This document shows, piece after piece, positions 41,231 through 53,426 of a stretch of 64,000 nt of DNA. The position numbers were made by a program, and so were the translations under genes. Position 1 is the first letter of the stretch, and every line of letters begins with the position of its first letter. A model generated the notes under the pieces. The model was not told where the DNA came from. It worked only from the letters and a program-made list of their open reading frames with translations, and made no database searches. The stretch comes from Rhodoferax sp. U2-2l (GTDB lineage Bacteria; Pseudomonadota; Gammaproteobacteria; Burkholderiales; Burkholderiaceae_C). The DNA is taken from the NCBI RefSeq assembly GCF_020594515.1, contig NZ_JAJCTH010000010.1, positions 62,001 through 126,000 of the forward strand, written 5' to 3'.

Positions 41231-43098
41231 TTTTGCAAGCCTTGACCGACTACTACCGCCGTGCGGAACTTTCACCACCTGGATGGGAATTAAAGGCGAT
41301 ACCGTTCTTTATCGTTCTTGATCTTGATGGTCAAGTGGTTAGCGTGATATCGCGCGCTGATCAAGCCAATCCACGTGGCAGTCAAATTTTGGTTCCTCAG
41401 TCGGAGATTCGATCGGGGAAAAATGCTTGGGCACAGCCCAATCTACTTTGGGATCACTACGGATTTGTTTTGGGTGAGCCCAAGCGAAAACCTAACGGGG
41501 ACATTGACCCAATAGATTCATATGAGAAGGCGGCAAAGCAGCTTGGTGCATTCGTTGCGCGCATTCAATCACTGCTGGTGAGATATCCAGAGTCGAGGGG
41601 GTTGGCCTCGATATCAAAGTTTTATGCGAGTGGTGAATACAAGAAAGTCTTTGCTAGGCCTGATGCTGTCGAAATTGTGAGGATCGCAGGCGCGAACATG
41701 ACGTTTCGGCTGGTGGGTGAAATCGAGCCGATCCTTCATGAAAAATGGGTACGAGACATTGTTTCGACGAGCGCCACTGCAGATGAAGATGCTGAAGATT
41801 TTGTTGTACCAAAGTCAGCCATGTGTCTAGTTACTGGTGATCTCGCAGAAATTGCACGATTGCATCCAAAAATCTACCGAGTCTGTTCAAAACCGACTGC
41901 GCTTGCTGCAGCCAATTCAAAGGAAGCGCAAGCCTATTCTTCATACGGTAAGGATCAAGGTTTCATTTTTCCAGTTGGGAAACCTGCTGTCTTCGCGTAC
42001 ACCACTGCGCTAAACCACCTGCTGCGCAAGGACTCGCCCCAACGCATTCAGGTGGGAGATGCGTCCACGGTGTTTTGGGCTGAGCGTGATTCGGACTTTG
42101 AGACGACCGTCGTTGATATTTTTGGTGACCCACCCAAGGACGACCCAGACCGAAGTACTCGCGCGGTACAGGCCGTGCTGAATGCGGTGCACAGTGGCAA
42201 ATGGGGTTCGTCTGATGAAAACACGCGCTTTTATGTCTTGGGTCTGGCCCCCAACGCGGCGCGCATCAGCATCCGCTTTTATCACTGCGTAACCCTGGGC
42301 GAGCTGGGCCAGCGCATCGCTCAGCACATTAAGGACTTGGAACTGGCGCGAGGGTCGTATGACCCGCAATATCCAAGTTTGAAGCGATTGCTTCAAACGG
42401 TTTGTCTAGCCACCAGCAGTCAACCCTTTGGCGACATTGACCGGCTTCCCCCGAACTTGGGCGGTGCCATTGTGGACGCTATTTTTGAGAGTGAAAACAC
42501 TCCGTATCCGGCGTTGTGGCTTAACGCGGCGGTAGGTCGCTGCCGCGCAGAGCAAGCGAAGAAAACGCAGCAGGGAACGCAAGCTCAAAACGTCCCATAC
42601 GCCCGGGCCGCGGTGATTAAAGCTTGTCTCAATCGACAAATACGCAGAACAAATCTTTCAGCACCCGACCACTTACATGAAAAGGAGTTCCTACCCATGC
42701 TTGATCTCACAAATACCAATCCGGGATACCTTTTAGGTCGGCTGTTTGCTGTCCTAGAACGATTGCAAGAGACCTCCGCAGGTGGCGGTGGAAAGTTGAA
42801 TTCAACGATTCGAGATAAATACTACGGTGCGATGGCTAGTTCGCCTGGGATAGTTTTTCCAACGCTGGATAACCTCAAAACCTCGCATTTAAAGAAGCTA
42901 CCTTGGGCACAAAAGGAGTGGTTTGACAAGTTGATTGGGGGGATTCTGAGCGAGCTACCCGATATCCCAAGACAGCTACCACTCCCAGACCAGGGCCGCT
43001 TTGCGCTGGGCTACTACCACCAGCGACAAGACTTTTTTACCAAAAAACCTGACGACTCCATCATCACAACTGCCTCCAAGGAAGGAACCCCAGCATGA
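41227..43098 (+). CDS. cas8c: Cas8c (Csd1) large Cascade subunit
   Basis: 623-residue type I-C large subunit, beginning MILQALTDYYRRAELSPPGW. It should recognise the PAM and help form the R-loop. Family segments such as PVGKPAVFAYTTALNHLLR, RFYVLGLAPNAARISIRFY and DLTNTNPGYLLGRLFAVLE are present. Start and stop overlap cas5 and cas7 by 4 bases. Base composition is uneven: about 41290-41990 and 42600-43000 are visibly richer in A and T than 42000-42480. An internal start for Cas11c lies at 42697. Confidence 0.95.
   Translation: MILQALTDYYRRAELSPPGWELKAIPFFIVLDLDGQVVSVISRADQANPRGSQILVPQSEIRSGKNAWAQPNLLWDHYGFVLGEPKRKPNGDIDPIDSYEKAAKQLGAFVARIQSLLVRYPESRGLASISKFYASGEYKKVFARPDAVEIVRIAGANMTFRLVGEIEPILHEKWVRDIVSTSATADEDAEDFVVPKSAMCLVTGDLAEIARLHPKIYRVCSKPTALAAANSKEAQAYSSYGKDQGFIFPVGKPAVFAYTTALNHLLRKDSPQRIQVGDASTVFWAERDSDFETTVVDIFGDPPKDDPDRSTRAVQAVLNAVHSGKWGSSDENTRFYVLGLAPNAARISIRFYHCVTLGELGQRIAQHIKDLELARGSYDPQYPSLKRLLQTVCLATSSQPFGDIDRLPPNLGGAIVDAIFESENTPYPALWLNAAVGRCRAEQAKKTQQGTQAQNVPYARAAVIKACLNRQIRRTNLSAPDHLHEKEFLPMLDLTNTNPGYLLGRLFAVLERLQETSAGGGGKLNSTIRDKYYGAMASSPGIVFPTLDNLKTSHLKKLPWAQKEWFDKLIGGILSELPDIPRQLPLPDQGRFALGYYHQRQDFFTKKPDDSIITTASKEGTPA
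42697..43098 (+). CDS. cas11c: Cas11c small subunit from internal start within cas8c
   Basis: 133 residues, in frame with cas8c from Met491. A strong ribosome site AAAGGAG (42681-42687) precedes the internal ATG by 9 bases, and the product begins MLDLTNTNPGYLLGRLFAVL. In studied type I-C systems the small subunit Cas11c is translated in just this way from the 3-prime third of cas8c and is needed for Cascade. Seen: ribosome site and ATG. Known: family behaviour. Not shown: actual translation here. Confidence 0.75.
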   Translation: MLDLTNTNPGYLLGRLFAVLERLQETSAGGGGKLNSTIRDKYYGAMASSPGIVFPTLDNLKTSHLKKLPWAQKEWFDKLIGGILSELPDIPRQLPLPDQGRFALGYYHQRQDFFTKKPDDSIITTASKEGTPA

Positions 43099-44054
43099 GC
43101 ACCGATAAAGCACTCGCCAACCGCTACGACTTCGTTCTGATTTTTGATGTGAAGGACGGAAACCCCAATGGTGACCCCGATGCAGGCAACATGCCGCGTC
43201 TGGACGCGGAGTCAGGTCATGGACTGGTGACCGATGTGTCGCTCAAACGCAAGGTGCGTAACTTTATTGGGCTCGTCAAAGGCGAACAGACTGGATTTGA
43301 TATTTTCATTAAAGAGAAGGCGGTATTGAACCAACTTATTGAGCGTGCTTATGAGAAGAGCCCAGAAGTGCAATCTGCAATGGAGGCATGGAAGGCTTGG
43401 CAAAAGGATAAGAAAAAGAATCAAAAACCTCCTAGGCATTACGAAGACATCGCTCGTGATTGGATGTGTCACAACTTTTTCGACGTGCGTACATTCGGTG
43501 CCGTCATGAGTACCGGTGATGAGGATGCAGAAAGCAAGTTGAAAAAAACTGCTGGGCAGGTTCGTGGACCGGTTCAATTGACTTTTGCACGATCAGTCGA
43601 GCCGATCGTTGCTCTGGAGCATTCCATTACCAGGATGGCCGTTACTAACGAAAAGGATTTGGAGAAAGAGCGCACCATGGGCCGCAAGCACACCGTGCCC
43701 TACGGCGTGTATGTGGCCCACGGTTTTGTGTCGTCGTTCCTGGCCAAACAGACCGGGTTTGGTGAGGATGACTTGGAACTGGTGTTCCAGGCCCTGGCGC
43801 AAATGTTCGAGCATGACCGTTCTGCCGCTCGCGGCGAAATGTCCACCCGTGGGCTTTACGTGTTCAAGCATGACAGCGAGCTGGGCAACGCCCCGGCCCA
43901 CGCTTTGTTTGACCGCCTCAAGGTAGAACCCAAGTCCGAGGGCGAAGTGGCCCGTAGCTTTGACGCATACGCCGTGGCGTTTGATGGTCAGAGTCTGGCG
44001 GTTGGGCAATCCGTTCAACCTGCGCCTGGCGTGACTTTGACTCGGCGCTGCTGA
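43095..44054 (+). CDS. cas7: Cas7c (Csd2) backbone subunit
   Basis: 319-residue RAMP backbone protein with the Csd2 signature RYDFVLIFDVKDGNPNGDPDAGNMPR (core DVKDGNPNGDPDAGNMPR) and LKRKVRNFIGL. Several copies coat the crRNA in Cascade. The middle segment VRTFGAVMSTG and AVTNEKDLEKERTMGRKHTVPYGVY (core RTMGRKHTVPYGVYVAHGF) match the family. The first two thirds of the gene are more A/T-rich than the last third. It overlaps cas8c by 4 bases; the next gene, a BRO-N protein, starts 11 bases downstream. Confidence 0.95.
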   Translation: MSTDKALANRYDFVLIFDVKDGNPNGDPDAGNMPRLDAESGHGLVTDVSLKRKVRNFIGLVKGEQTGFDIFIKEKAVLNQLIERAYEKSPEVQSAMEAWKAWQKDKKKNQKPPRHYEDIARDWMCHNFFDVRTFGAVMSTGDEDAESKLKKTAGQVRGPVQLTFARSVEPIVALEHSITRMAVTNEKDLEKERTMGRKHTVPYGVYVAHGFVSSFLAKQTGFGEDDLELVFQALAQMFEHDRSAARGEMSTRGLYVFKHDSELGNAPAHALFDRLKVEPKSEGEVARSFDAYAVAFDGQSLAVGQSVQPAPGVTLTRRC

Positions 44055-44065
44055 TTGGAGCGAGC

Positions 44066-44908
44066 ATGAAAATCCTGCCCACCGACTTCGACGGTCAGTC
44101 CATCCGCCGCGTGTACGACGAAGACACCGAAACCTGGTGGTTTTCGGTGATTGACGTGGTGCAAGTGCTCACGCAGCAAGTGGATGACCTGACCGCCAGA
44201 AAGTATTGGAACCAGCTCAAACGGCGGCTTGCCAATGAGGGGAGTCAACTGGTGACAAGTTGTCACCAGTTGAAAATGCCCGCTGCCGATGGCAAGCAGC
44301 GTCTGACCGACGTAGCCACCGCCGAAACCCTGCTGCGCTTGGTGCAATCTGTCCCCAGCCCCAAAGCCGAGCCCATCAAACTCTGGCTGGCCAAGGTGGG
44401 TTACGAGCGCATGCAAGAGCTGGCCGACCCGGCCTTGTCGCTCGACCGCGCCCGCCAGACCTGGCAGCAGCATGGCCGCAGCGACAAGTGGATTCAGCAG
44501 CGCATGACTGGGCAGGAAACCCGCAACAAGCTCACCGACTACTGGAGCGCGCACGACATCAAAAAGGGCAGCGAATTTGCCATCCTGACCAACATCATTC
44601 ACCAGGAATGGGCGGGCTTGAGCGTGGCCGAGCACAAAGGCATGAAGGGTCTGACCAGCCACAACCTGCGCGACCACATGAGCGAGGCGGAGCTGATCTT
44701 CACCGCGCTGGCCGAACTGTCCACCCGCCAGATCGCGCAGAGTGTGGAAGCCATTGGCATGGCAGAAAACAAGACGGCTGCCAAAGCGGGTGGGCGCATT
44801 GCCCGCCAAGCACGTCACCAGTTGGAGAGCCAAACCGGTAAGTCCGTGGTGTCCGGCGAGAACTTCTTACCAGTTACTGCAAAAAAGATAGTTAAAGGTC
44901 AAGATTAG
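44066..44908 (+). CDS. BRO-N/DinD-like protein embedded in the cas operon
   Basis: 280 residues. Residues about 5-115 form a BRO-N (phage antirepressor-type) domain: FDGQSIRRVYDEDTETWWFS, DVVQVLTQQVDD, YWNQLKRRLANEG, SPKAEPIKLWLAKVGYERMQE. The C-terminal part (about 130-250) resembles DNA-damage-inducible protein D: KGSEFAILTNIIHQEW, LTSHNLRDHMSEAELIFTALAEL. It has a ribosome site (GGAGCGAG) 4-11 bases before the ATG, starts 11 bases after cas7 and ends 26 bases before cas4, so it is transcribed with the cas genes. It is not a standard type I-C gene. It may be a DNA-binding regulator, a damage sensor or a passenger; function unknown. Confidence 0.8.
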   Translation: MKILPTDFDGQSIRRVYDEDTETWWFSVIDVVQVLTQQVDDLTARKYWNQLKRRLANEGSQLVTSCHQLKMPAADGKQRLTDVATAETLLRLVQSVPSPKAEPIKLWLAKVGYERMQELADPALSLDRARQTWQQHGRSDKWIQQRMTGQETRNKLTDYWSAHDIKKGSEFAILTNIIHQEWAGLSVAEHKGMKGLTSHNLRDHMSEAELIFTALAELSTRQIAQSVEAIGMAENKTAAKAGGRIARQARHQLESQTGKSVVSGENFLPVTAKKIVKGQD

Positions 44909-44924
44909 ACAAGGGCTAGAGGCA
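44881..44924 (+). repeat. Degenerate 44-nt motif ending in GGGCTAGAG (copy B)
   Basis: Overlaps the last nine codons and stop of the BRO-N gene and ends just before cas4. It aligns ungapped with copy A at 5786-5829 (about 27 of 44 positions). It may mark the join where the BRO-N gene entered the cas operon. Confidence 0.4.
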
Positions 44925-44934
44925 CAAATCTCTT

Positions 44935-45573
44935 ATGGAAACGGCAGAACCCATTCCCTTGTCCGCCCTGCAGCACTGGCACTACTGCCCGCGCCAGTGC
45001 GGTCTGATCCATCTGGAGCAGGTGTTTGACGACAACGTGCACACCTTGCGTGGTCAGGCGGTGCATGCCAAGGCGGATCAGCCCGGCGTGGAAACCGCCA
45101 AGGGTGTGCGCGTGGAGCGCGCCTTGCCGCTGTGGCATGACGCGCTGGGGCTGATCGGCAAGTCAGACGTGGTGGAGTTTTTGGCCGGTGGTGTGCCCTA
45201 CCCAGTGGAATACAAACACGGCAGCCGCAATAAAGCCGCCGACATTGCCGCGTGTGACGACATCCAACTGGCCGCGCAGGCCCTGTGCCTGGAAGCCATG
45301 ACCGGCAAACCGGTGAACGAAGGTGCGCTGTACTACGCCACCTCTAAGCGCCGCCGGGTGGTGCCGATCACCGTGCAGTTGAAGACTGACGTGGCACAAA
45401 CCGCGCAGGCCATCCGCCAGATGCTGGCCAGCGGCACGCTGCCACCACCCCTGAGCGGTGAGCAAGCCGCCAGACGCTGCAAGGCGTGTTCGCTGCAAGA
45501 GCGTTGCCAGCCGCAAGCCACCCATGCGGGCTTGCTCTCTGCCCGCGCCGCCTTGTTTGACCCTGACGCATAG
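44935..45573 (+). CDS. cas4: Cas4 exonuclease (type I-C adaptation)
   Basis: 212-residue RecB-like nuclease. The iron-sulfur cluster Cys set is visible as YCPRQCGLIH near the N-terminus and CKACSLQERC near the C-terminus; nuclease motifs are IGKSDVVEFL and PVEYKHG (Lys and Glu of the active site). Cas4 trims prespacers and helps select PAM-correct ends with Cas1-Cas2. No strong ribosome site is apparent after the BRO-N gene. Confidence 0.94.
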   Translation: METAEPIPLSALQHWHYCPRQCGLIHLEQVFDDNVHTLRGQAVHAKADQPGVETAKGVRVERALPLWHDALGLIGKSDVVEFLAGGVPYPVEYKHGSRNKAADIAACDDIQLAAQALCLEAMTGKPVNEGALYYATSKRRRVVPITVQLKTDVAQTAQAIRQMLASGTLPPPLSGEQAARRCKACSLQERCQPQATHAGLLSARAALFDPDA

Positions 45574-45595: not shown

Positions 45596-46624
45596 ATGCA
45601 ACTCCTCAACACCCTGTACGTCACCACGCCCGACACCTATCTGCGGCTGGACAACGACACCCTGCGTGTGGAGGTAGACCGCGAAACGCGGCTGCGCGTG
45701 CCGCTGCACCACCTGAGCGCGGTGGTGTGTTTTGGCCACACTGGTTTGTCGGCCCCACTCATGCACCGGTTGGCAGAGAGTGGCGTGGCACTGGTGCTGC
45801 TTGACGACAACGGCCGTTTCAAAGCGCGTCTAGAAGGTGCTGTCAGTGGCAATGTGTTGCTGCGCCAGGCCCAGTTTCAGCGCGTAGCCGACCCTGCCTT
45901 CACGCTCGACATGGCCCGTGCCAGTGTGGCGGGCAAGATCAAAAACACCCGGCAAGTCTTGCAGCGCGGTGCCCGCGAAGCGAAGTCTGAGGATGAGGCC
46001 AAGGTCTTGACACGTTTAGCAGATGATCTGGCCGCCAGCCTGCGCGCCTTGCCCGAGGTCACCAACCTGGACAGCTTGCGTGGCGTCGAAGGTGAAGCCG
46101 CACGCCAATACTTCAGCGGCCTGAACCTGCTGGTGCGCCCTGACCAACGCGCTGCCTTTGCCATGGATGGCCGCAGCCGCCGCCCACCGCGAGATCGCTT
46201 CAATGCCATGCTGTCGTTCATGTACGCCATGTGGATGAACGATTGCCGCAGCGCGCTGGAAGCAGCAGGGTTGGACCCGCAGGTGGGCTTCTTGCACGCT
46301 TTGCGGCCAGGCCGCGCCGCTTTGGCGCTGGACTTGATGGAAGAGTTCCGCCCCTGGGCCGACCGGCTGGCCCTGACCCTCATCAACCGGGGCCAGTTGA
46401 GTGCGGACGATTTTGTGCTGCGCGAAGGCGGTGGCGTGTCGCTGCAGCCCGATGCTCGCAAGGCCGTGGTGGTGGCCTTTCAGGAGCGCAAAAAGGACGA
46501 AATCAACCACCCGCTGCTGGCGCAATCCGTGCCGCTGGGTTTGGTGCCGCTGGTGCAAGCCAGGCTGATGGCTCGCGCCCTGCGTGAAGACGGCGCACCC
46601 TATGTGCCCTTTGTGGCGAAGTAA
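45596..46624 (+). CDS. cas1: Cas1 integrase (type I-C)
   Basis: 342 residues, starting MQLLNTLYVTTPDTYLRLDNDTLRVE, the I-C Cas1 beta-sandwich. The catalytic Glu lies in LRGVEGEAARQYF, the His in QVGFLHALRPGR and the Asp in LALDLMEEFRP. It integrates new spacers at the leader end of the array with Cas2. It is 22 bases after cas4 and 9 bases before cas2. Confidence 0.96.
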   Translation: MQLLNTLYVTTPDTYLRLDNDTLRVEVDRETRLRVPLHHLSAVVCFGHTGLSAPLMHRLAESGVALVLLDDNGRFKARLEGAVSGNVLLRQAQFQRVADPAFTLDMARASVAGKIKNTRQVLQRGAREAKSEDEAKVLTRLADDLAASLRALPEVTNLDSLRGVEGEAARQYFSGLNLLVRPDQRAAFAMDGRSRRPPRDRFNAMLSFMYAMWMNDCRSALEAAGLDPQVGFLHALRPGRAALALDLMEEFRPWADRLALTLINRGQLSADDFVLREGGGVSLQPDARKAVVVAFQERKKDEINHPLLAQSVPLGLVPLVQARLMARALREDGAPYVPFVAK

Positions 46625-46633
46625 AGGGCCATC

Positions 46634-46924
46634 ATGCTGGTACTGGTTTGTTACGACGTGAGCACCGAAACCAAGGCCGGCCGCCGCCGTTTGCGCCGCG
46701 TGGCGCGGGTGTGTGAGAGCACCGGGCAGCGGGTGCAAAAGTCGGTGTTTGAGTGCCAACTGGACGTGGCCAGGTTTGAAACCCTGGAGCGCGAGCTGCT
46801 GGCCGAAATCGATCCCAGCATGGACTGCCTGCGGCTGTACCGCATTCCCGGCACACGCGGTTTTGAGGTGATCGAACACGGCACCTTCAAGGCCGTGGAT
46901 TTTGACGGGCCGCTGGTGCTTTAA
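46634..46924 (+). CDS. cas2: Cas2 (type I-C)
   Basis: 96-residue ferredoxin-fold protein beginning [20 protein letters not shown] with the conserved Asp8, then the family segment [14 protein letters not shown]. It dimerises and bridges two Cas1 dimers in the integrase. It is the last gene of the operon, directly before the leader. Confidence 0.96.
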
Positions 46925-47149
46925 GCGCCGTTCACCAGGGCCCATGCCAGTTTTGCCATGGTATGGTTACCTCCGCGAACCCCAAGTGATGGCTTTGTCA
47001 CCCAGAGGTTCGCGCCCTTTGCAATTCTTTGTTTTGAATGGTTTTTTGATTTTTTTGAGGTTGAATTTTTTGCAGACACATGTCGTCATCGCCAGGTCCG
47101 CGGAAATGCACGAAAAAATCGTTGACCAGTAAGGCGTTGGATGCGCGGA
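46925..47149 (+). promoter_or_regulatory. CRISPR leader
   Basis: 225 bases between cas2 and the first repeat with a T-rich middle (about 47020-47075) unlike the GC-rich surroundings. The undecayed repeats begin here and the decayed ones are at the far end, which marks this as the leader. Array promoter and integration signals should lie here; no exact -10/-35 or IHF match was convincing. Confidence 0.8.
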
Positions 47150-50100
47150 GGTTCGCCCGCCAGCAATGGCGGGCGTGGATTGAAACTCGCTGGTCAGCAC
47201 CCAGTCCCAGACCTTGCGAAGGTTCGCCCGCCAGCAATGGCGGGCGTGGATTGAAACCTCACCCGCCTTGGCCTTGGCTGAGTTGATGGTTGGTTCGCCC
47301 GCCAGCAATGGCGGGCGTGGATTGAAACATCCATGCTGCGCGAGACTTTGGGCACCAACGGAAGGTTCGCCCGCCAGCAATGGCGGGCGTGGATTGAAAC
47401 GATGTCGGCGTCTTGCCGTCGCGGGCTGCGCGTGGGTTCGCCCGCCAGCAATGGCGGGCGTGGATTGAAACCATCTTCACGCCAAAGTCCGCTACGGCAT
47501 AGGCGGGTTCGCCCGCCAGCAATGGCGGGCGTGGATTGAAACAGGTAGCCCATGGCGGCGTTGATCGCAGCGGTTCGCGGTTCGCCCGCCAGCAATGGCG
47601 GGCGTGGATTGAAACTTCTGCGCGCCCGGTCAGGTATTTGCCGATGTCGGTTCGCCCGCCAGCAATGGCGGGCGTGGATTGAAACTACTGGTGGTGATTG
47701 GACTCACGCAAACATCCGGCCGGTTCGCCCGCCAGCAATGGCGGGCGTGGATTGAAACTTGATGATGTGGCGTCTAAAGGTGGTTGGCCGTCGGTTCGCC
47801 CGCCAGCAATGGCGGGCGTGGATTGAAACTATCAATCTGTAACGCACTGGCCGCACTGTTTGCGGTTCGCCCGCCAGCAATGGCGGGCGTGGATTGAAAC
47901 TATTGATCTACCAATGTTGATTGCAAAAGCAAAAGGTTCGCCCGCCAGCAATGGCGGGCGTGGATTGAAACAGTCGTTCGCCATCAAGAGCTATCACGGT
48001 GGTGGGGTTCGCCCGCCAGCAATGGCGGGCGTGGATTGAAACAATCAAGAAACGGCCTGTTCTTGATCGGCTCCTGGGTTCGCCCGCCAGCAATGGCGGG
48101 CGTGGATTGAAACGACCAAAATTCTGGGCGTTAATCCGGGGTGATGTAGGTTCGCCCGCCAGCAATGGCGGGCGTGGATTGAAACAATTCGGATTGTGCG
48201 AGGTCCATGCTACCCGCAGGGTTCGCCCGCCAGCAATGGCGGGCGTGGATTGAAACCGGTCTTTGACCGAAGCCATAGAAACAGAAACCCCGGTTCGCCC
48301 GCCAGCAATGGCGGGCGTGGATTGAAACCTTTGGCGGCTATGGTGTTGCCAATGGAACAGGTAGGTTCGCCCGCCAGCAATGGCGGGCGTGGATTGAAAC
48401 AAGAGCTCACCGATGCCATCGCCAGCAAATCAGGGGTTCGCCCGCCAGCAATGGCGGGCGTGGATTGAAACATCGTCTGGCACATCATCAAGCGTTTTGC
48501 AGCCAAGGTTCGCCCGCCAGCAATGGCGGGCGTGGATTGAAACACACCGTAAGCAACAAAAAGATTACGATCTGGAGGTTCGCCCGCCAGCAATGGCGGG
48601 CGTGGATTGAAACCCTCAAACGTCATCCGCTTTGAGCCCCGCACGCGGGTTCGCCCGCCAGCAATGGCGGGCGTGGATTGAAACTGGCTGACCCATGGAT
48701 TCAACCGTGCGGCACACGGGTTCGCCCGCCAGCAATGGCGGGCGTGGATTGAAACGGCAACTGCTGTCGGTGTTTCGATGGGCTTGGAGGGTTCGCCCGC
48801 CAGCAATGGCGGGCGTGGATTGAAACGCTCGATTATGCAAACTGGTCTAGATCGCTTGCGGGTTCGCCCGCCAGCAATGGCGGGCGTGGATTGAAACCCT
48901 CAAACGTCATCCGCTTTGAGCCCCGCACGCGAGGGTTCGCCCGCCAGCAATGGCGGGCGTGGATTGAAACATACCAGTGGCGCCCGAGCCAACCAGTGTC
49001 ACGGGGTTCGCCCGCCAGCAATGGCGGGCGTGGATTGAAACTGGAGCTCATCGGTAACGCCAAGTTGCCGGGCCGTGGTTCGCCCGCCAGCAATGGCGGG
49101 CGTGGATTGAAACACGCGCCTGGGGTCGTAAATGATCAACCTGTTGAGGTTCGCCCGCCAGCAATGGCGGGCGTGGATTGAAACACCTCAAACAGGGAGA
49201 CGTCCCACGTATCAGGGAGGTTCGCCCGCCAGCAATGGCGGGCGTGGATTGAAACAATGCACCGGCACTACAACGTTGACGTCCTGCTTAGGTTCGCCCG
49301 CCAGCAATGGCGGGCGTGGATTGAAACAGCCTCTCGGTGAATGCTCTGGCCTGTTGCGCTTTGGTTCGCCCGCCAGCAATGGCGGGCGTGGATTGAAACA
49401 GTCACGACCCGGACAGTTACCAGCTGTGCCGGGGTTCGCCCGCCAGCAATGGCGGGCGTGGATTGAAACTGATGGAGTAGCGGCCATGACCGACTACGCT
49501 CTCGGTTCGCCCGCCAGCAATGGCGGGCGTGGATTGAAACTGAGAAAAAGAACTACAGCGGTTGCGATCCAGGCGGTTCGCCCGCCAGCAATGGCGGGCG
49601 TGGATTGAAACACACCAAGCAGAAACGCAAAATCCCCGGCTTGGTGGTTCGCCCGCCAGCAATGGCGGGCGTGGATTGAAACGGGATGTGGGGGGAAGGT
49701 TTGTAAAGGTTCGGGTGGTTCGCCCGCCAGCAATGGCGGGCGTGGATTGAAACATTGCCGGGCCAGTTGCATCAGGAGCAACGCCGAAGGTTCGCCCGCC
49801 AGCAATGGCGGGCGTGGATTGAAACATCGTTTTTGCTGTCATCGCTGGCGTGATGGCCTGGTTCGCCCGCCAGCAATGGCGGGCGTGGATTGAAACTGCC
49901 TAATACTGATCCGCAGCAGTGGCGCACGCCAGGGTTCGCCCGCCAGCAATGGCGGGCGTGGATTGAAACGCCAGTAGAAAGGAAAACCGGAGAAAAGAAC
50001 TGTGGGTTCGCCCGCCAGCAATGGCGGGCGTGGATTGAAACTTCAGTTGGCTCTCCAGCCACTGAATCGCCTGAGGGTTCGCCCGCCAGCAATGGCGGGC

Positions 50101-53100
50101 GTGGATTGAAACTTTTACGATACGTTTATTGATCTTGACGACTGTCGGGGTTCGCCCGCCAGCAATGGCGGGCGTGGATTGAAACTGATGGAGTAACAGC
50201 CTTGACCGACTACGCTCTCGGTTCGCCCGCCAGCAATGGCGGGCGTGGATTGAAACCCCCAGGTAGTAGCAGTGCAGGTCGTGAAGGGCTGGTTCGCCCG
50301 CCAGCAATGGCGGGCGTGGATTGAAACATTGATCTTGACGACTGTCATTTTCAGCCAAAACGGTTCGCCCGCCAGCAATGGCGGGCGTGGATTGAAACAT
50401 CCTGCTTGGTGCGAGAGGGGGCGATTGATGGGGGTTCGCCCGCCAGCAATGGCGGGCGTGGATTGAAACTCCGCCAGCTGGTTGGTCGGGTGGCTCGCAA
50501 GCCGGTTCGCCCGCCAGCAATGGCGGGCGTGGATTGAAACGTCTATTGATGGTCCAACAAAAATCACGGATCATGGTTCGCCCGCCAGCAATGGCGGGCG
50601 TGGATTGAAACGGCCTGGGCTATATCGGGGGGTATCTCCAATGAAGGTTCGCCCGCCAGCAATGGCGGGCGTGGATTGAAACCTCTACGTGTTGTGCCGT
50701 ATGTATAACCTTGGTGGGTTCGCCCGCCAGCAATGGCGGGCGTGGATTGAAACAAATTGGCAGCATGGGTAACAAACCCACAAAACGGGTTCGCCCGCCA
50801 GCAATGGCGGGCGTGGATTGAAACCAGGTAGCTGTCTTGCAGTTCCCATACCTGGGGGGGTTCGCCCGCCAGCAATGGCGGGCGTGGATTGAAACACTGT
50901 GGCCTGCAAAAACGTCATTGAGTGTGGCCGGTTCGCCCGCCAGCAATGGCGGGCGTGGATTGAAACTTTGAAAATCAGGCAACTTAGCCGCGTTTACTTG
51001 GGTTCGCCCGCCAGCAATGGCGGGCGTGGATTGAAACAAGCCCTTTCGAGTGAAACTCGGAAAAAGGGCGCGGGTTCGCCCGCCAGCAATGGCGGGCGTG
51101 GATTGAAACCACAAATCGTACAGGCGAACGGCGTTCCGCTGATGGTTCGCCCGCCAGCAATGGCGGGCGTGGATTGAAACCGTATATTGATGCAGCTTTG
51201 TTGATTAATAAATTCGGTTCGCCCGCCAGCAATGGCGGGCGTGGATTGAAACAGGAGTTTGTCGATTCCGTTGCCGCTAAATCCGGGGTTCGCCCGCCAG
51301 CAATGGCGGGCGTGGATTGAAACCCCTTGAGAGGCAGCAGGCTCAGCCAGGACGCGGGGGTTCGCCCGCCAGCAATGGCGGGCGTGGATTGAAACGATAT
51401 GAAACTGCGTACTTATGGCCTGATGGCCGGGTTCGCCCGCCAGCAATGGCGGGCGTGGATTGAAACCACCCACCAAGCCGGGGCTGTCTCGGTGATCTGG
51501 CGGTTCGCCCGCCAGCAATGGCGGGCGTGGATTGAAACAAAACCGCAGGATTCGCCCGCGTTGTTGTCGGCGGTTCGCCCGCCAGCAATGGCGGGCGTGG
51601 ATTGAAACCAACCATCAGCAGAAGGGTGGTGCAAAGAGCTTGGGTTCGCCCGCCAGCAATGGCGGGCGTGGATTGAAACGGATTTGTGCGGCTGACGGTC
51701 CAAAACTACAGCAGGTTCGCCCGCCAGCAATGGCGGGCGTGGATTGAAACCCCCACCTGAGCGTCGACAAGTTCCTGCGCAAAGGGTTCGCCCGCCAGCA
51801 ATGGCGGGCGTGGATTGAAACCTCTTCGCGCCGCTGGCGGCGCCGGGTGGCGCGGCGGTTCGCCCGCCAGCAATGGCGGGCGTGGATTGAAACAACCGCA
51901 TAGCCCGGGAGCGGCGCCGTGGTGATTGGTTCGCCCGCCAGCAATGGCGGGCGTGGATTGAAACTCTCGGGCCTGTTACGTCAGGGTGCCGGACAAGCCT
52001 GGTTCGCCCGCCAGCAATGGCGGGCGTGGATTGAAACCCGGTCCCCCTGGTTTCCAAGGTCGGCGCAACCAAGGTTCGCCCGCCAGCAATGGCGGGCGTG
52101 GATTGAAACGGCTCAGTCCAATATGTATAACACGGCGCAACGGGGTTCGCCCGCCAGCAATGGCGGGCGTGGATTGAAACTATGCCGTGCTGGCCCGCGC
52201 CATCGCGCCGCGCCGGTTCGCCCGCCAGCAATGGCGGGCGTGGATTGAAACCGTTTTAGTGGTGTTGTTCGTAACGTTTTGCGTGGGTTCGCCCGCCAGC
52301 AATGGCGGGCGTGGATTGAAACCCTTTGACTGGATGGCGCGGCGTGCTGGCACCAAGGTTCGCCCGCCAGCAATGGCGGGCGTGGATTGAAACATTGACG
52401 GGCCAGACGCTGGAGGTGGCACCCCGAAGGTTCGCCCGCCAGCAATGGCGGGCGTGGATTGAAACAACACCGTGGGCGCGATGACGCCCGTGTGGGTGGT
52501 GGTTCGCCCGCCAGCAATGGCGGGCGTGGATTGAAACCAATACAGCGATGCTGAACGGCACCTGCCAATCTGGGTTCGCCCGCCAGCAATGGCGGGCGTG
52601 GATTGAAACCCACCTTCGGGGATCAAAAAGGGGACATTTCGGCTGGTTCGCCCGCCAGCAATGGCGGGCGTGGATTGAAACCCGAGTTGGCGCATAAAGG
52701 TGATCCAGTCCGCATCGGTTCGCCCGCCAGCAATGGCGGGCGTGGATTGAAACCCCAACAGCGCCAACTGTTCCGGGTCGTGACTGAAAGGGTTCGCCCG
52801 CCAGCAATGGCGGGCGTGGATTGAAACGTACAGGTCTTTGATGTACTCGGTCAGCTTCTCGGGTTCGTCCGCCAGCAATGGCGGGCGTGGATTGAAACTT
52901 CAGAACCATGCGCGTGCCCACCGAGCCATCAGTGGTTCGTCCGCCAGCAATGGCGGGCGTGGATTGAAACAATATGCCCGCCAGTGGTGCCGTTGCCATC
53001 GGTGGGTTCGTCCGCCAGCAATGGCGGGCGTGGATTGAAACGCGTCAGCTTCGAGGCCCTACGCACCGGGCAAGGCGGTTCGTCCGCCAGCAATGGCGGG

Positions 53101-53328
53101 CGTGGATTGAAACTGCTGTGGCTCAAGGGAGTGACCTTCCCGCCTCTGGTTCGTCCGCCAGCAATAGCGGGCGTGGATTGAAACATCTGGTACGTCGCCG
53201 CGATGTGTTATTTCGCTGGGGTTCGTCCGCCAGCAATGGCGGGCGTGGATTTAAACGACAAGGACATACTGCTTTTGGACCGGGCGATCAAGTTTCTTTC
53301 GCCAGTAATGGCAGACACCGATTGAAAC
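47150..53328 (+). CRISPR. Type I-C CRISPR array: 86 clear repeats plus one decayed repeat, 86 spacers
   Basis: Hand count of repeat starts from 47150 to 53292 gives 87 units spaced 70-74 bases. The 37-base repeat is GGTT, stem CGCCCGCC, loop AGCAAT, stem GGCGGGCG, then the 11-base handle TGGATTGAAAC; spacers are 33-37 bases. Repeats 1-80 appear identical. Repeats 81-86 share a C-to-T change at position 7, 85 and 86 have further changes, and 87 is strongly decayed. The ATTGAAAC end and the leader position show transcription on the + strand. Several spacers are related in pairs (see findings). Confidence 0.98.
52862..53328 (+). repeat. Variant and decayed trailer-end repeats
   Basis: Repeats starting at 52862, 52934, 53005, 53077, 53148 and 53220 read GGTTCGTCC at the start instead of GGTTCGCCC; the 53148 copy also has AATAGCGG and the 53220 copy ends TTTAAAC. 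The last unit (53292-53328) keeps GCCAGTAATGGC and ATTGAAAC only. These are the oldest units. Confidence 0.85.
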
Positions 53329-53426
53329 AATTCAACCCTCTATGCCCTGATGTCAAGCGCATCTTGCAGGGTGTGCCTCAGACGCTGGATACGAACCTGC
53401 GGTTGAGCTCGCATCCAGCCAGTGCT

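What the first reader, a model, noticed from the sequence alone, without database searches (positions are those of the whole stretch)
44066..44908. BRO-N/DinD-like gene built into a type I-C cas operon between cas7 and cas4
The gene is packed 11 bases after cas7 and 26 bases before cas4 with its own ribosome site, splitting interference from adaptation genes. BRO-N proteins are DNA-binding antirepressor-type factors of phages, and the C-terminal half resembles SOS-induced DinD, which in E. coli affects RecA filaments. A damage- or phage-responsive protein made with Cascade and Cas4-Cas1-Cas2 could tune adaptation, signal infection or inhibit recombination. It could also be a passenger. This is the strongest candidate here for an unlisted Cas accessory.
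Basis: partly seen in the sequence, partly recalled or inferred. Interest (0 to 1): 0.72.

Follow-up and report, generated by a model that had tools for sequence, protein, structure and literature searches.

The report
Self-reading DNA-binding gene in cas operon
A gene tucked between two CRISPR genes encodes a DNA-binding protein whose reading helix changes, across many bacterial groups, in step with a mirror-image DNA site inside the gene's own coding sequence, so the protein probably switches itself (and perhaps the defence genes behind it) on and off; it is a roaming defence-island gene, not a dedicated CRISPR part.

Summary
The gene is real and sits as described: 280 aa, 11 nt after cas7 and 26 nt before cas4 in a complete I-C operon. 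It is not specific to CRISPR. At least 8 of 41 I-C loci in the family carry it. Near-identical homologues also lie after hsdS in type I R-M operons, in Shango, I-B and I-F loci, and alone. The same cas7-cas4 junction takes toxin-antitoxin modules in 8 of 12 I-C loci examined that lack it.

The important find is inside the gene. Codons 61-69 form a 27-bp palindrome (44246-44272) whose two arms covary across homologues: 193 doubly changed cells against 56 expected. Residues 45-52, on the predicted recognition helix of the Bro-N domain, predict the 7-nt half-site exactly in about 90% of cases, even from neighbours under 55% identical. Other parts of the protein manage 5-45%. The exact site occurs once in the genome. 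E. coli K-12 dinD holds the same kind of covarying palindrome at the corresponding place.

Best reading: a self-regulating DNA-binding protein whose operator lies in its own coding sequence. Binding is strongly inferred; repression and any effect on cas4-cas1-cas2 are untested. I found no earlier description, but that search was limited.

The parts
44066..44908 (+). Bro-N protein gene (280 aa; PADLOC PDC-S13, PHROG 15286)
44246..44272 (.). intragenic palindrome CAACTGGTGACAA-G-TTGTCACCAGTTG (codons 61-69, QLVTSCHQL); perfect arms extend to 44245-44273; proposed operator, half-site GGTGACA
   Evidence: sequence; arm covariation; only exact copy in the genome
44198..44221 (+). codons 45-52 (RKYWNQLK) of the predicted recognition helix (AF2 helix 41-57) that predict the palindrome half-site
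44105..44395 (+). Bro-N domain (residues 14-110), predicted wHTH/APSES-like DNA-binding fold
44411..44875 (+). C-terminal half (residues 116-270), mostly helical, very conserved, function unknown; weak likeness to DinD, DdrC-like overall arrangement
43095..44054 (+). cas7c (upstream neighbour)
44935..45573 (+). cas4 (downstream neighbour)
45596..46924 (+). cas1 (45596-46624) and cas2 (46634-46924), the genes that an intragenic roadblock would affect

Best explanation
The gene encodes a probably dimeric winged-helix DNA-binding protein that recognises a palindrome carried inside its own coding sequence. The recognition helix (residues 45-52) reads the 7-nt half-site, here GGTGACA. Helix and palindrome change together, so each family member is addressed to its own gene. 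Bound protein most likely blocks RNA polymerase part-way through its own gene and so represses itself; in an operon this would also damp the genes downstream (here cas4-cas1-cas2). Because gene and operator are one piece, the cassette can move between operons (type I R-M, CRISPR I-C/I-B/I-F, Shango, solo) without a promoter of its own and stay self-regulated. Shown: the palindrome, the compensatory change of its arms, the helix-to-half-site correspondence, its uniqueness in the genome, the mobility between contexts. Inferred: physical binding (about 0.9), negative autoregulation (about 0.65), an effect on downstream defence genes (about 0.4). What releases the protein (for example DNA damage or phage DNA) is unknown.
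For: (1) Arm covariation in 62 distinct 27-mers: 91.0% of cells paired against 64.1 +/- 1.1 shuffled (0/500), 193 doubly changed cells against 56, score 0.698 against 0.201; slid by 1-3 columns it falls to 26-38%. It is not protein-driven: with the same peptides and the genes' own codon usage 8.0 of 13 pairs form, observed 11.6; Val codon GTG/GTT/GTA goes with partner His/Asn/Tyr. (2) Helix code: RKYWN[KQ]LK-GGTGACA, RNYWKVLK-GGTTACA, RKYWKVLK-GGTAACA, xAYWRKLK-CGTGACA, xVYWRVLK-CGTTACA, RDYW[FY]..K-GTCGACA, [KR]RYWSDLK-GTACGA, NRYWSDLK-TTACGA, TDYLKKLR-GGGACA. It held in loci fetched afterwards from another phylum, down to 42-44% identity. 1-nearest-neighbour exact 7-nt prediction from residues 43-52: 0.88 on later loci, 0.93 and 0.89 with neighbours at most 70% or 55% identical; other regions 0.04-0.45. 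(3) Partial correlation with the palindrome, C-terminal distance removed: 0.61 at residues 44-50, 0.17-0.25 at 71-80 just beside the palindrome, about 0 at 8-31 and over most of the C-terminal half. (4) AF2: HTH-like helices 28-36 and 41-57, pLDDT 81-88; N-domain resembles the APSES DNA-binding domains Mbp1 and DNA-bound PCG2 (Z 7.2-7.4). (5) Exact core once in 4.23 Mb. (6) DinD: K-12 dinD and homologues hold covarying palindromes at the matching codons; the 32-bp K-12 site occurs once per genome in 1,884 genomes.
Against: No binding, expression or regulation data. The AF2 C-terminal half is poorly predicted (pLDDT down to 40, pTM 0.46) and no dimer was modelled. Helix and palindrome are about 25-75 nt apart, so linkage adds to their association, although the lower correlation next to the palindrome argues against linkage alone. 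Two plasmid homologues beside parAB have no palindrome (L147, L148), and some members have imperfect ones (L081, L095, L174; the common E. coli non-K-12 dinD allele). Roadblock repression from inside a gene is inferred, not measured.
Confidence: 0.72

Rival explanations
1. Unlisted Cas accessory: a damage- or phage-responsive protein specialised to tune I-C adaptation or interference.
For: Recurs at the effector/adaptation boundary of I-C loci, also where the effector is a different Cas8c variant or the order is changed (L009, L014, L018, L039, L042); also cas4-BRO-cas1b-cas2 in an Arcobacter I-B locus and cas1f-BRO in I-F.
Against: Absent from most I-C loci of the family; close homologues in R-M, Shango and solo sites; 12 label changes on the tree; the junction also takes toxin-antitoxin modules.
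Confidence: 0.1
2. Passenger addiction-type module: the junction is an insertion spot for selfish, self-regulated modules, and this gene persists there like the HicBA, HigBA and ParDE pairs found at the same place.
For: 8 of 12 I-C loci without the gene have a 0.5-1.8 kb insert at the junction, all with toxin-antitoxin-like genes (RelE, HicA, ParE, PIN by Pfam); 10 of 33 loci with the gene have such a module nearby as well.
Against: One gene only, no partner seen in most contexts; no toxic domain recognised. Compatible with the best explanation (it concerns why the gene stays, not how it is regulated).
Confidence: 0.3
3. The palindrome is an RNA hairpin in the mRNA (pausing, processing or translation control), not a DNA operator.
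For: Arms of 11-13 nt with a 3-5 nt loop could fold in RNA.
Against: Few G-U pairs: mismatches inside the stem are no more often G-U than A-C; the helix code is explained by DNA reading, not by RNA structure; no Rfam match.
Confidence: 0.04
4. Mutational upkeep: template switching in the palindrome keeps arms matched without selection.
For: Quasi-palindrome correction is a known bacterial mutation process (own knowledge).
Against: It does not explain the match with helix residues, nor retention at one position down to about 42% identity.
Confidence: 0.03
5. The palindrome is a target or attachment site used when the gene moves, rather than an operator.
For: The gene hops between operons and carries its own site.
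Against: No nuclease, integrase or transposase domain; the site is in the middle of the gene; no copies in the flanking sequence.
Confidence: 0.06

Closest known systems
PADLOC PDC-S13 / PDC-S04 (phage-defence candidate single genes), PHROG 15286
   Same: Full-length PDC-S13 match, 400 bits; full-length PHROG 15286 match; found in defence contexts
   Different: No function, operator or mechanism came with the models; the embedded covarying palindrome is not mentioned in anything found
E. coli DinD (b3645), SOS-induced, reported to act on RecA filaments (reference 97 in PMC4457935)
   Same: Bro-N domain and a covarying palindrome at the corresponding codons
   Different: Own promoter region upstream of dinD; sequence relation of the C-terminal halves weak; solitary gene
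DdrC of Deinococcus radiodurans
   Same: Best full-length fold match (Foldseek E 5.9e-7; Z 9.2, 178 aligned, rmsd 13.6); damage-induced DNA-binding protein, monomer and dimer (PMC5436757)
   Different: Reported to bind DNA without sequence specificity (PMC5436757); domain arrangement fits poorly (large rmsd)
APSES/KilA-N type DNA-binding domains (Mbp1, PCG2)
   Same: N-domain fold, Z 7.2-7.4
   Different: Eukaryotic transcription factors, no embedded operator known to me
Antitoxin-type autorepressors of toxin-antitoxin modules (HicB, HigA)
   Same: Small self-regulated modules at the same cas7-cas4 junction
   Different: Two genes, operator in the promoter (own knowledge), no operator inside the coding sequence

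Membership tests
Bro-N domain proteins (PF02498) | Bro-N domain above gathering score | tested here: met
   34.5 bits against 25.6, residues 14-110
PADLOC PDC-S13 | full-length profile match | tested here: met
   400 bits, residues 8-273 of 280
DinD | homologous C-terminal domain | tested here: inconclusive
   BLASTP E 0.023; hhalign E 0.011, probability 4%
DinD | own damage-induced promoter | tested here: inconclusive
   lies 11 nt after cas7 and no sigma-70-like site was found in 43500-45100, but LexA boxes were not searched and regulation not measured
DinD | action on RecA filaments | not testable with these tools
   needs biochemistry
DdrC | shared two-domain fold | tested here: inconclusive
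   E 5.9e-7 and Z 9.2, but rmsd 13.6 and a low-confidence C-terminal half
dedicated Cas accessory | found mainly at cas loci and in most loci of the subtype | tested here: not met
   8 of 41 I-C loci; many homologues in R-M, Shango and solo sites
phage antirepressor | common in phage genomes | tested here: not met
   4 of 50,697 phage records; one IMG/VR locus
toxin-antitoxin module | toxin plus antitoxin gene pair | tested here: not met
   single ORF between cas7 and cas4 here
autoregulatory DNA-binding protein with an intragenic operator | palindrome in own gene, specific to own recognition helix | tested here: met
   (sequence evidence only)
autoregulatory DNA-binding protein with an intragenic operator | binding and repression | not testable with these tools
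   needs EMSA/ChIP and expression assays

The most novel reading that the evidence does not exclude
A widespread class of bacterial regulators, including E. coli DinD, carry their operator inside their own coding sequence, with a readable residue-to-base code linking recognition helix and operator. As mobile cassettes they bring CRISPR adaptation genes, type I R-M genes and other defence genes under a self-addressed roadblock that is lifted on infection or DNA damage.
Probability: 0.35. Interest if true: 0.92.

Novelty: new variant of a known kind. Interest (0 to 1): 0.82.

Why it matters
A DNA-binding family appears to carry its operator within its own coding sequence, with both parts changing together across several phyla. 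That gives a natural, readable protein-DNA recognition code from many sequences, a route to function for a widespread uncharacterised defence-island family, and a directly testable prediction for E. coli K-12 dinD, an SOS gene of unclear role. It also shows a way for a gene to stay self-regulated while moving between operons, and flags the cas7-cas4 junction of I-C operons as an insertion spot for self-regulated modules.

Tried and rejected
Second copies of the palindrome as a promoter operator: 9-mer half-site matches in 81 loci are scattered; the 11-nt repeat at 44814-44824 is not conserved. Protein-level cause of the palindrome: rejected by the synonymous-codon null and the Val-codon/partner rule. 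RNA family: no Rfam match. Phage origin: few phage or plasmid records. Relatives among solved structures by sequence: nothing meaningful. Literature: Bro-N with type I-C and CRISPR, PDC-S13 (13), Bro-N with palindrome (32), with restriction-modification and defense (33), DinD with Bro-N (89), intragenic operator with autoregulation (90), toxin-antitoxin with cas operon and type I-C (99) gave no prior description; the DdrC structure paper and the DinD-RecA paper are not held. A planned distance correlation of the gene with Cas1/Cas7 failed in the script and was not repeated. The DinD palindrome set was hand-picked from the distinct, well-formed sites, so its percentages are biased upward; one search lists nearly all, including poor ones (L135, L138, L142, L206) and one without (L203).

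Full report
OBSERVATION. The ORF 44066-44908 (+, 280 aa) is present as described, 11 nt after cas7c and 26 nt before cas4, in a complete type I-C operon preceded by a WYL regulator gene and followed by a large repeat array. Pfam finds Bro-N at residues 14-110; NCBIfam finds nothing; PADLOC places the whole protein in PDC-S13, an uncharacterised phage-defence candidate; PHROG 15286 also fits. The 'DinD-like' C-terminal half is only weakly supported.

WHERE THE GENE LIVES. About 24 lie among cas genes, nearly always directly before the adaptation genes cas4-cas1-cas2, also where the effector is a different Cas8c variant or the last effector gene is cas3 rather than cas7. Others lie behind hsdS in type I R-M operons (Methylase_S in 11 of 34 same-strand upstream neighbours of non-CRISPR loci; ResIII in 5 and HsdM_N in 4 of 26 downstream neighbours). 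Others sit between sngA and sngB of Shango (L058, L066), beside cas1f in I-F (L064, L080), between cas4 and cas1b in an Arcobacter I-B locus, or stand alone. In 301 genomes of the window's family, 41 have I-C cas1, 29 have a homologue, and in 8 the two lie side by side. On a tree of the C-terminal part the CRISPR label needs 12 changes (26 when shuffled): clustered, but moving in and out. Phage and plasmid records rarely hold it.

THE JUNCTION. In 12 I-C loci without the gene, four have a tight cas7-cas4 junction (29-49 nt) and eight have 0.5-1.8 kb inserts, all with toxin-antitoxin-like genes: RelE plus HTH, HicA with a HicB-like partner, ParE plus an addiction component, a PIN protein. The same-genus genome G215 has a RelE/HTH pair there. 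Ten of 33 loci with the gene have such a module nearby too. So the boundary between effector and adaptation genes is an insertion spot, and the gene is one of several self-regulated modules that use it.

THE PALINDROME. Codons 61-69 read CAACTGGTGACAAGTTGTCACCAGTTG, a palindrome with 13-nt arms and a 1-nt centre (44246-44272). In homologues the sequence changes but the symmetry stays: GGTGACA, GGTTACA, GGTAACA, CGTGACA, CGTTACA, GTCGACA, GTACGA, TTACGA, GGGACA, GGGTACA and others, each with its complement on the other arm. Over 62 distinct sites, 91.0% of cells are paired against 64.1% shuffled, 11 of 12 pairs have compensatory changes, and doubly changed cells number 193 against 56. Synonymous Val codons on one arm go with different amino acids on the other (GTG-His, GTT-Asn, GTA-Tyr), so the constraint is on nucleic acid, not on protein. 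No second copy recurs in the flanks, and the exact core occurs once in the 4.23 Mb genome.

THE CODE. Residues 45-52, early in the second helix of the predicted helix-turn-helix (AF2 helices 28-36 and 41-57, pLDDT 81-88), map onto the half-site. Thirty-two different octamers each go with one half-site, allowing small variants. The correspondence was first read from 125 loci. It then held in loci fetched later from another phylum (Desulfobacterota) and from plasmids, at identities down to about 42%. A nearest-neighbour test gives exact 7-nt prediction in 0.88 of the later loci, and 0.93 or 0.89 over all loci when the neighbour may be at most 70% or 55% identical; other parts of the protein give 0.04-0.45. 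With C-terminal distance removed, correlation with the palindrome is 0.61 at residues 44-50, only 0.17-0.25 at residues 71-80 beside the palindrome, and about 0 at 8-31 and over most of the C-terminal half. Linkage alone would not give that order. Same-position evidence includes Lys/Gln50 with GTGACA but Val50 with GTTACA or GTAACA in two backgrounds (RNYWKVLK, xVYWRVLK), and Asn45 with TTACGA against Arg/Lys45 with GTACGA.

DinD. E. coli K-12 dinD has TGACCATTTCGAGGA-GA-TCCTCGATATGGTCA at codons about 58-69, and most DinD homologues examined have a covarying palindrome there (counts on a selected set). The 32-bp K-12 site is found once per genome, in dinD, in 1,884 genomes. E. coli has a second, 86-87% identical dinD allele group (about 2,732 genomes against 1,932 K-12-like) with a different helix and a different, less perfect palindrome.

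MECHANISM. The simplest account is that the protein binds its own gene as a dimer and limits its own transcription by roadblock; in an operon this would also damp what follows. Shown by sequence: palindrome, covariation, code, uniqueness, mobility. Inferred: binding, repression, downstream effect, release signal. The best full-length fold match is DdrC, a damage-induced DNA-binding protein, with poor overall superposition; DdrC is reported to bind DNA without sequence specificity (PMC5436757), so sequence reading would be a difference. RNA hairpin, mutational upkeep and mobility site are less likely (see rivals).

VERDICT. The gene is a recurrent but non-dedicated resident of cas operons. Its embedded, co-evolving operator appears undescribed within the limits of my search (open-licence papers only) and extends to E. 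coli dinD, where it can be tested directly.

Noticed in passing
L210-L219, L003, L006, L018, L024, L035, L039, L042, L044 (cas7-cas4 junctions): The cas7-cas4 junction of I-C operons is an insertion spot for toxin-antitoxin modules (HicBA-like, RelE/HTH, ParE/addiction component, PIN), alone or together with the Bro-N gene.
   Followed up: partly
L133 3761-4585 (E. coli K-12 dinD), L206, L208: E. coli dinD exists as two allele groups about 13% apart in DNA, with different recognition helices and different intragenic palindromes.
   Followed up: partly
L147 4977-5828, L148 4974-5825: On Candidatus Chlorohelix plasmids a distant Bro-N homologue lies shortly downstream of parA-parB genes and has no palindrome.
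   Followed up: no
L058 7161-14437, L066: A Bro-N homologue lies between sngA and sngB of a Shango-type defence operon.
   Followed up: no
L009, L014: I-C-like loci with order WYL-cas5-cas8c variant-cas7-cas3 share the same Bro-N-cas4-cas1-cas2 block as ordinary I-C loci, as if effector modules had been exchanged.
   Followed up: no
window 47144-53329: Very long I-C repeat array (at least 86 repeats) behind cas2, suggesting an active adaptation module despite the inserted gene.
   Followed up: no
L104, L111, L112, L117, L128: Several homologues are broken by in-frame stops or truncated, as expected of a gene often gained and lost.
   Followed up: no
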